A stretch of 64,000 nt of DNA, taken from NCBI GenBank assembly GCA_016234485.1, contig JACRBL010000036.1, positions 147,799-211,798 of the forward strand, in the 5' to 3' direction. Source of the stretch: Chloroflexota bacterium (GTDB lineage Bacteria > Chloroflexota > Anaerolineae > Anaerolineales > Villigracilaceae). Each line of letters starts with the position of its first letter. The stretch's first letter is position 1. The translations under genes were made by a program, and so were the position numbers. Positions 34,499 to 36,703 of the stretch are shown here, one piece after another. The notes below the pieces were generated by a model. That model searched no databases and was not told where the DNA came from. It saw only the letters and a program-made list of their open reading frames with translations.

Positions 34499-36604
34499 TC
34501 ACATTCGCCGAATCGTCGCGATCGGCTCGCTGGCGATGGGCGGCTCGGCGGCAGGATATTGGATACGCGGGTGATACGTGCCGCGGAAGGTGGTGACGAA
34601 CGATTCGACGATCACGTTGAGGTCGCGCAGGGTGAGCATAGTGTGGTCGAGTTGGCTTTCCTTCTGGACGTATTCGATCACGCCGCGCACGATGGCGCGC
34701 ATGTCTTCGTCGGTTTGAGGGCTTTGGGCGCGCGAGCGAGCCTCGGCGCCGTCGGCGAGCATCAGGATGGCGGTCTCGCGCGAGCGTGGACGTGGGCCGG
34801 GGTAGCGAAATTTTTCGACGTCAATTTGCGCGGCGTCGCCGTTCGCTTTTTGGAGCGCCTGATTGTATTGGTAGCGCGTCAACATCGTGCCGTGATGTTC
34901 GAGCATGAAATCGGCGATGCGACGCGGCAGGCGATGTTTGCGCGCCAGAACCGCGCCGTCGGTGACGTGGCGGATGATGGTGGCCGCGGCCAGCTCAGGG
35001 TCAATGTCTTGATGCGTGTTTACCTGTCCAGGCGCCTGGTTCTCGATGAAGAAGGCCGGGTTGGCGGCCTTGCCCACGTCATGAAATATCGCGCCGACGC
35101 GCGCCAGCAGTGGGTCGGCGCCGATGGCTTCGGCGGCTTGTTCGGCCAGGTTCGCAACCTGCAAACTGTGTTGATACGTGCCTGGCGCGTTGCGCAGGAA
35201 AAATTGCAAAAGGGGATGATCGGGGCGCGAAATTTCGAGCAGGTGCAAGGTGGTGGCGAGGCCGAGCCACTGCGCGAGAAAATATTGACCGAGCAACGCG
35301 AAGGCCGCCGATAAAAACCCCATGCCCGCCGCGGCCAGCAAAAGTTGCGTCACGCCCAGCCAGTCGAGGCCGCCCGCGGAGATGCGGAAGGCCAGCAAAA
35401 CGAGGACGCCCGCGCCCGTCACCGACGCGCCCGCCCAAATGAAGTACCAGAAGCGGCGCGCAGGTCCGAGTGAGAGAACGCCGCAGAGCGACGCGAAAAG
35501 ATAATAAGGAAGAAGGTCAGAATTAAATCCGTACGCGGCCAGGATGCATGTCACGATGGAGATGACGATGCCCGCCTCCATGCCAAACAGCGCGGCGATC
35601 AACATGCCGACCGCGGGGAGTGGATACACGTAGGGGATGAGAACATTATCGGGAATGGCGAGGCGGGCGCCCGCCAGAAAAAAAAGGTAAAGCGCAGCGA
35701 TCACGATCATGCTGCGCGGCTCGTATAAAAACCCCAATCGTTTACGGCGATAAAAATACAACGTGGCGAACGCGGCCAGCATCACGACCAGCGCGCCCTT
35801 GCCCAGCAGGTCGAGCGGTTGCGACGTGGAGCGAATCAGCCCCAGCGCCTGCAACGCCTCCACCTGTTCGGCGGTGATGCGTTCGCCCGCGCGGACGATG
35901 GTCTCGCCTGCCTTGTAGGTGACTACGACGGACGCCACCGCGTCGCGTGCGGAGGCGCGCGCGGCCTCGGTCAGTTCGGGACTGTGGAGGCTGTTCGCGG
36001 TCACGAAGGGCTTCACCAGCTCGCTGACAATGCCCGCGTCCGATTCGCTCATCGAAAAACTGACGAGGGATGGCACACTGCGGCGCACGGTCTCCACGTC
36101 CGAGTCGCGGATGACGCCGCGCAGGACGCGCTCCAGCACGGTCAGAGATTCGGCGCGCACGTCGTCCCAGCGCGAGTCGGTGAGGAAGAGCAGAAGGTCA
36201 ATCGTCTCCACCGAAAGCGCGAGGTCCGAGATGGAGGCGATGCTGTTGCGTTTTTGGTCGCGGTTCGTGTCGGAGTTGGCGCGGATGAGCGCGATGGAAT
36301 CGAGCGCGGCGCGCAGGCGTCCCATTTGCTGGCGTGAGATGGCGGGATCGGGCGGGGTAAAAACGGGCGGGACGGAATCGTAGGCGGCCTGTTTCCGTCG
36401 TTCAGTAAGAACGGCGCTTTCGAAATCGTGTTCGGTGGAGGCGACGTAATCGCGCGGCGAGATGTCCCCCGCGTTGAGCGGCGATGCGGACGGGCGCAGG
36501 GCATCGGGGAAGGCGAGCGCGCCGAAGGATGCCACGGCCGCGACCGCGAGCAGGATGAAGCGAAAAACGGTCAGGCGCCTGCTGGAGCGCGGTTCTGTTG
36601 TCAT
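34499..36604 (-). CDS. 7TMR-HD family phosphohydrolase (PgpH-like, probable c-di-AMP phosphodiesterase)
   Basis: Extracellular 7TMR-HDED-like region, 7TM, then GAIFHDVGKAANPAFFIENQ HD motif. Confidence 0.9.
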   Translation of the reverse strand: MTTEPRSSRRLTVFRFILLAVAAVASFGALAFPDALRPSASPLNAGDISPRDYVASTEHDFESAVLTERRKQAAYDSVPPVFTPPDPAISRQQMGRLRAALDSIALIRANSDTNRDQKRNSIASISDLALSVETIDLLLFLTDSRWDDVRAESLTVLERVLRGVIRDSDVETVRRSVPSLVSFSMSESDAGIVSELVKPFVTANSLHSPELTEAARASARDAVASVVVTYKAGETIVRAGERITAEQVEALQALGLIRSTSQPLDLLGKGALVVMLAAFATLYFYRRKRLGFLYEPRSMIVIAALYLFFLAGARLAIPDNVLIPYVYPLPAVGMLIAALFGMEAGIVISIVTCILAAYGFNSDLLPYYLFASLCGVLSLGPARRFWYFIWAGASVTGAGVLVLLAFRISAGGLDWLGVTQLLLAAAGMGFLSAAFALLGQYFLAQWLGLATTLHLLEISRPDHPLLQFFLRNAPGTYQHSLQVANLAEQAAEAIGADPLLARVGAIFHDVGKAANPAFFIENQAPGQVNTHQDIDPELAAATIIRHVTDGAVLARKHRLPRRIADFMLEHHGTMLTRYQYNQALQKANGDAAQIDVEKFRYPGPRPRSRETAILMLADGAEARSRAQSPQTDEDMRAIVRGVIEYVQKESQLDHTMLTLRDLNVIVESFVTTFRGTYHPRIQYPAAEPPIASEPIATIRRM

Positions 36605-36703
36605 TTGGTCGGCTAGTCACATAGTCGGGTGGTCGCGTGGTCGGATAGTCGGGTGGTCGGGCGGACCATGCGACTATTAGACTATTCGACTAACCAACTA
36701 CTT
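36600..36703. repeat. 8-bp tandem array O5, inverted halves
   Basis: GTCATTTG|GTCGGCTA|GTCACATA|GTCGGGTG|GTCGCGTG|GTCGGATA|GTCGGGTG|GTCGGGCG|GACCATGC|GACTATTA|GACTATTC|GACTAACC|AACTACTT, uninterrupted phase. Confidence 0.95.

What the first reader, a model, noticed from the sequence alone, without database searches (positions are those of the whole stretch)
36600..36703. yqeY-pgpH gap is one continuous 13-unit octamer array holding both the stop and the start codon in the same unit position
From 36600 every 8 bp is a unit: seven GTC-type units after GTCATTTG, then inverted GAC-type units ending AACTACTT. The pgpH start codon (CAT, 36602-36604) sits at unit positions 3-5 of GTCATTTG, and the yqeY TAG stop (CTA, 36698-36700) sits at positions 3-5 of AACTACTT. 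No ordinary spacer is left: the array is the intergenic region and replaces any Shine-Dalgarno for pgpH.
Basis: seen in the sequence. Interest (0 to 1): 0.88.

Follow-up and report, generated by a model that had tools for sequence, protein, structure and literature searches.

The report
Octamer arrays anchored at gene edges
The gap between two bacterial genes is one of about 80 arrays of an 8-letter unit that sit exactly at gene edges across this genome and many related Anaerolineae, sometimes supplying the stop codon, ribosome-binding site or even a riboswitch hairpin, and nothing known explains how they get there.

Summary
In detail: window 36600-36703 is 13 octamers in one register. Eight are GTC-type and five are inverted GAC-type, running from the yqeY stop to the pgpH start. 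It is not a local oddity. The core unit is TRGTCNNN. It has 211 three-unit matches in the 4.46-Mb genome (control 0), roughly 80 arrays, and it occurs patchily across the class (70 of 299 genomes).

The core is conserved (95-100% per fixed base in held-out units), while the three spacer bases are free. Arrays are not copies of one another.

Of 93 arrays examined, 92 are intergenic. Arms always read TRGTC away from the adjoining gene edge and usually start within 10 bp of it. The array's own TAG is the stop in 29 of 31 stop-side arms. The first spacer makes a Shine-Dalgarno (GGAGACYA) in 12 of 44 start-side arms. Two-armed arrays also sit in the P3 loop of SAM riboswitches. Close relatives differ by whole units.

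At pgpH the array is an insertion. The nearest relatives lack it and have overlapping or 1-2-nt junctions, also without a Shine-Dalgarno, so "replaces the SD" is only partly right.

This is a new variant of known intergenic short-repeat families (TAACTGA heptamers, STRRs, GTAG-REPs). Its mechanism is unknown.

The parts
36600..36663 (+). GTC arm: 8 octamers (seven exact TRGTC cores at 36606-36658), reading TRGTC away from the pgpH start edge
36664..36703 (-). GAC arm: 5 octamers (four exact GACYA cores), reading TRGTC away from the yqeY stop edge on the minus strand
36602..36604 (-). ATG start codon of pgpH inside the outermost GTC unit (sense ...GACCAAATGACA)
   Evidence: upstream in-frame TAG excludes an earlier start; N-terminus aligns with relatives
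36698..36700 (-). TAG stop codon of yqeY inside the outermost GAC-side unit
34499..36604 (-). pgpH (7TM-HD phosphohydrolase), downstream gene
   Evidence: Pfam PF07697, PF07698, PF01966
36698..37141 (-). yqeY (GatB/YqeY-like), upstream gene
   Evidence: Pfam PF09424; next to pgpH in 30 of 30 loci
3567..3603 (+). same family: single arm, 6 bp from a start codon
7385..7429 (+). same family: single arm filling a 39-bp junction from stop to start; start codon in a GTCATTTG unit as at pgpH
20041..20077 (-). same family: single arm abutting a conserved promoter-like stretch AATTATATCTGCTAAAATAC; absent in G001, a 155-bp two-armed array in G002/G007
44026..44062 (-). same family: single arm
57559..57653 (.). 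same family: two-armed, TAG stop of the gene at 57651-60272 supplied by the array

Best explanation
The yqeY-pgpH spacer is one member of a dispersed family of intergenic arrays (unit TRGTCNNN) found across Anaerolineae. SHOWN: the core is conserved and the spacer free. Arms are oriented outward from, and usually start at, the edge of constrained DNA. Arrays appear in formerly tight junctions and gain or lose whole units. INFERRED: a sequence-recognising trans-acting factor (an integrase, nuclease or repair-type activity, or a binding protein) recognises TRGTC and lays down or maintains arrays, while unit slippage changes their length. Insertions survive mainly where they do not damage a gene: at the stop codon (the unit carries its own TAG), at the start codon (the unit can supply an ATG or an SD), between tRNAs, or in the P3 loop of a SAM riboswitch, where inverted arms can fold into a hairpin. 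At this locus an array entered a 0-2-nt yqeY/pgpH junction, replaced stop and start with its own TAG and ATG, and now forms a hairpin-capable spacer that is probably transcribed. Any effect on pgpH (looser stop/start coupling) would be a by-product.
For: Genome-wide: 211 vs 0 control. Class-wide and patchy: 37/61 relatives, 70/299 in the class. Held-out middle-unit test: T 105/106, G 103, T 106, C 101, spacers free, and equal in single and double arms (97.5 vs 97.9%). Adjacent units repeat the same triplet 1/76, so no homogenisation. No 3-unit word is shared between arrays. Edge rule: of 62 single-arm arrays, 44 tails lie within 10 bp of a gene edge vs 16.8 expected (0 of 20,000 simulations) while 9 heads do; arm order always TRGTC..GACYA. 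Empty and filled sites at pgpH and elsewhere. Whole-unit indels in 3 of 7 orthologous arrays. TAG stops 12/13 vs 37/167, p=6e-7. SD-making first spacer 12/44 vs 2/209, p=1e-8. SAM riboswitch P3.
Against: No factor has been identified. The one family tested (Y1/RAYT transposases, PF01797) is nearly universal and does not track array number. No target-site duplication was demonstrated. Pure harmlessness does not explain why an arm sits at a gene edge when more than 100 bp of other spacer remains. The held-out test conditions on intact neighbours, so it favours undecayed arrays; the pgpH array of G002/G007 is visibly decayed. Gene edges come from a simple home-made ORF caller, checked by homology only in part.
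Confidence: 0.5

Rival explanations
1. Post-transcriptional regulatory sites: the arrays are binding sites in mRNA leaders and trailers for an RNA-binding protein, as proposed for TAACTGA repeats in Beggiatoaceae.
For: Arrays end at start codons and start at stop codons; the core is conserved in single arms where no hairpin is possible; some start arms carry an SD in the first spacer; close precedent in PMC4679880.
Against: In sense RNA the start side carries GACYA and the stop side its reverse complement, so one RNA-binding protein would see only one of them. Arrays also sit between tRNA genes and upstream of promoters. Distribution is patchy even within a genus (0 to 211 matches).
Confidence: 0.2
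2. RNA hairpin function: inverted arms fold and bring the yqeY stop next to the pgpH start, keeping translational coupling, or insulate neighbouring RNA structures.
For: Strong predicted hairpin at this locus (sense -45.4 kcal/mol, z=-5.0); stop and start lie at the stem base; arrays inside SAM riboswitch P3 are two-armed (12 of 14 clean, the other two ambiguous by a chance overlap).
Against: Spacers of the two arms do not pair better than arms of different loci. The sense strand is not more stable than antisense (9 of 20 tandem arrays, p=0.28; here antisense is more stable). 62 of 92 intergenic arrays are single-armed and obey the same edge rule.
Confidence: 0.15
3. Ordinary minisatellite: replication slippage of a chance octamer, with intergenic location due only to selection against coding damage.
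For: Whole-unit indels between G002 and G007; some relatives (G042, G282) have near-homogeneous arrays.
Against: Core conserved and spacer free in unrelated arrays; adjacent units rarely share a triplet; fixed outward orientation at gene edges and class-wide reuse of one core.
Confidence: 0.13

Closest known systems
TAACTGA heptamer direct repeats of Beggiatoaceae, Cyanobacteria and Bacteroidetes (MacGregor 2015, PMC4679880)
   Same: Short tandem intergenic units in many sets per genome, most ending within a few nt upstream of a start codon with no canonical SD, some overlapping the upstream stop; indels in whole units; relatives have shorter spacers without repeats.
   Different: 7-bp perfect unit against 8-bp unit with a 5-bp core and 3 free bases; there one main orientation toward the start, here outward from both start and stop edges with inverted pairs; other sequence and phylum. 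Riboswitch and SD-encoding members are found here.
GTAG-tagged REPs (Di Nocera et al. 2013, PMC3733652)
   Same: Dispersed, extragenic, close to ORF ends; termini often supply the TAG stop; hairpin-forming; present in Chloroflexi.
   Different: REPs are 20-40-bp palindromes with a fixed tag and related copies; here octamer arrays of variable length, often one-armed, not copies of each other, and not tracking RAYT/Y1 genes.
Cyanobacterial STRR heptamers (known from general knowledge; only usage in typing papers seen)
   Same: Short tandem units dispersed between genes.
   Different: Different unit; gene-edge anchoring and core/spacer split not reported in what I could read.
SAM-I riboswitch RF00162
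   Same: Host of some arrays; P3 is the variable-length arm.
   Different: The array is an insert of about 75-110 nt in P3, different in each genome.

Membership tests
TAACTGA-type heptamer repeats | Unit TAACTGA, period 7 | tested here: not met
   Period 8, TRGTCNNN
TAACTGA-type heptamer repeats | Located directly upstream of start codons, mostly without SD | tested here: met
   Here no SD; 11 of 15 start-abutting genes in this genome lack one vs 77 of 165 others (p=0.06)
GTAG/CGTC REP with RAYT | 20-40 bp stem-loop with GTAG or CGTC tag, copies alike | tested here: not met
   No fixed tag; arrays share no 3-unit word
GTAG/CGTC REP with RAYT | Genome encodes a cognate Y1 (RAYT) transposase | tested here: inconclusive
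   Y1 family near universal; array-rich G007, G021, G060 show only the long (>500 aa) Y1 protein among listed matches, not the short RAYT-sized form
Simple minisatellite by slippage | Unit number varies in whole steps | tested here: met
   16- and 48-bp differences, G002 vs G007
Simple minisatellite by slippage | All unit positions equally homogeneous within an array | tested here: not met
   Core 95-100%, spacers free; adjacent triplets equal 1/76
Rfam RNA families | Match above gathering score at this locus | tested here: not met
   Only sub-threshold mir-341 (20 of 90 bits) and sR24
RemA binding sites | AT-rich 7-bp protected repeats with 3-bp intervals | tested here: not met
   PMC8481266 description against TRGTCNNN

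The most novel reading that the evidence does not exclude
Anaerolineae carry a trans-acting system, not yet described, that writes or maintains oriented arrays of TRGTC with random 3-base spacers outward from the edges of genes, promoters, tRNAs and riboswitch stems, making these arrays a standard spacer material of the genome.
Probability: 0.3. Interest if true: 0.88.

Novelty: new variant of a known kind. Interest (0 to 1): 0.62.

Why it matters
The combination is unusual: a conserved core with free spacers, orientation set by the gene edge and not by transcription, array-supplied stop codons and SDs, and repeated entry into SAM riboswitch P3. It makes the old question of what short intergenic repeats do, and how they spread, directly testable, because empty, filled and length-variant sites exist in near-identical relatives and the riboswitch copies have a known RNA fold and function to assay.

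Tried and rejected
Spacer pairing between arms (own arms no better than foreign ones). Sense-strand hairpin selection (no bias). RAYT/Y1 transposase as the driver. RemA. Arrays as copies of one element (no shared 3-unit words). Target-site duplication of TA (first cores are TA or TG in a mixture; not supported). Rfam match. Intrinsic terminator at the locus (none found). Synteny beyond 37 kb in G001 is lost, so the arrays at 44 and 57 kb have no ortholog comparison. Literature searches found no description of this family in Chloroflexota; most subscription journals are not held.

Full report
WHAT IS THERE. Both genes are secure (Pfam 7TMR-HDED/HD and YqeY), and they are neighbours in all 30 loci fetched (this genome and 29 relatives). 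The sense strand folds to -45.4 kcal/mol (z -5.0) and the antisense to -57.3 (z -5.2).

A FAMILY, NOT A CURIOSITY. Rewritten as TRGTCNNN, the unit is everywhere in this genome: 211 three-unit matches against 0 for the reversed control. The 38 arrays examined in this genome hold 102 of those matches, so about 80 arrays are expected. Of 61 relatives (own genome included), 37 have matches, from 0 to 272, patchily even within the genus. With four units, 70 of 299 genomes of the class match, again patchily. Named public records with the pattern are dominated by Anaerolineae/Anaerolineales, and the YqeY homologs that carry a name are Anaerolineales or Chloroflexota. The organism name itself is inferred.

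CORE AND SPACER. To avoid circularity I looked only at units whose neighbours, but not themselves, were required to match. In this genome the core bases are T 105, G 103, T 106, C 101 of 106, and position 2 is A/G in 95; positions 6-8 are free. Single- and double-armed arrays do not differ (97.5 and 97.9%). Adjacent triplets are equal in 1 of 76 cases, and no three-unit word is shared by two arrays. Slippage alone would not give this.

EDGE RULE. Among 93 arrays from at least five families, 92 lie between genes. Arm order is always TRGTC then GACYA. In 62 single-armed arrays with both neighbours known, 44 tails are within 10 bp of the adjoining gene edge (16.8 expected for random placement in the gap, 0 of 20,000 simulations) and 9 heads are. 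So an arm reads TRGTC away from whatever gene it touches, at start and stop edges alike. On the stop side the array's own TAG is the stop in 29 of 31 arms (this genome 12/13 vs 37/167 other genes, p=6e-7). On the start side the first spacer is TCC (sense GGA, giving GGAGACYA, a Shine-Dalgarno) in 12 of 44 arms vs 2 of 209 spacers elsewhere (p=1e-8). Arrays also fill gaps between tRNA genes and abut a conserved promoter-like stretch.

RIBOSWITCH. In this genome one array lies inside a SAM riboswitch (RF00162, E 1.4e-15) as an insert in the loop of P3; G007 has a different array at the same place. Among 24 SAM riboswitch P3 arms examined, mostly long copies chosen for length, 14 carry three or more cores, 12 of them cleanly two-armed TRGTC..GACYA (two ortholog pairs are included, so about 12 are independent). 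Two near-identical genomes differ by 21 nt there (177 vs 198 nt), matching the 16+5-bp indel seen in the same arrays.

HISTORY OF THIS COPY. G001 (pgpH 81% identical) has TAG-CC-GTG, G004 and G005 have TAA-C-GTG, and G003 has a GTGA overlap: no array and no SD. G002 and G007 (71-72%) have a decayed array of about 90 bp at the same place, also starting at TAG and ending in ATGAC. The array is thus an insertion into a tight junction, with loss in G001, parallel gain, or recombination left open. It did not displace an SD. Orthologous arrays elsewhere keep the position but change units (L063, L251, L085), and between G002 and G007 (mostly 98-99% identical flanks) 3 of 7 arrays differ by whole units.

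MECHANISM. Shown: insertion, unit gain and loss, core conservation, edge orientation, use of the array's stop and presence of an SD in some start arms. Inferred: a factor recognising TRGTC. Hairpin function is only weakly supported: arms of one locus do not match each other better than foreign arms and the sense strand is not favoured. Y1/RAYT transposases do not track arrays.

KNOWN RELATIVES. The nearest precedents are TAACTGA heptamer arrays at start codons (PMC4679880) and GTAG-REPs that supply TAG stops (PMC3733652). The present arrays work like a mixture of both but fail a defining feature of each, so I call them a new variant. LIMITS: gene edges come from a simple ORF caller, genomes are largely draft assemblies, and array loci were chosen by pattern.

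Noticed in passing
L303-L321, L067, L100, L087, L088: SAM riboswitch P3 arms in the order carry long inverted short-unit arrays. Besides TRGTC there are TRGTT variants (G004, G013, G014, G021) and other units (AAAACTG-like in G001, GGTTAGA-like in G039), as if P3 were a favoured home for any such array.
   Followed up: partly
control columns: G122, G246, G066: The reversed control pattern (CTGRTNNN arrays) itself rings strongly in a few genomes (133, 54 and 17 matches), so other lineages may have octamer arrays with a different core.
   Followed up: no
window about 3608-3700 and upstream of 20041 (about 19900-20010): Palindromic repeat GTCATTGCGAGG..GCAATCTCC..GGGATTGCTTCG..CAATGACGG, with many matches in G001, lying next to or inside octamer-array gaps.
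   Followed up: no
window 37175-37215: A 21-bp tandem repeat (TGCGTGGTACGTACTGCGTGT) just upstream of yqeY.
   Followed up: no
L261 (G001): The array orthologous to L068:2878 has spacings of 8, 9, 9 and 8, so the period is not absolutely fixed.
   Followed up: partly
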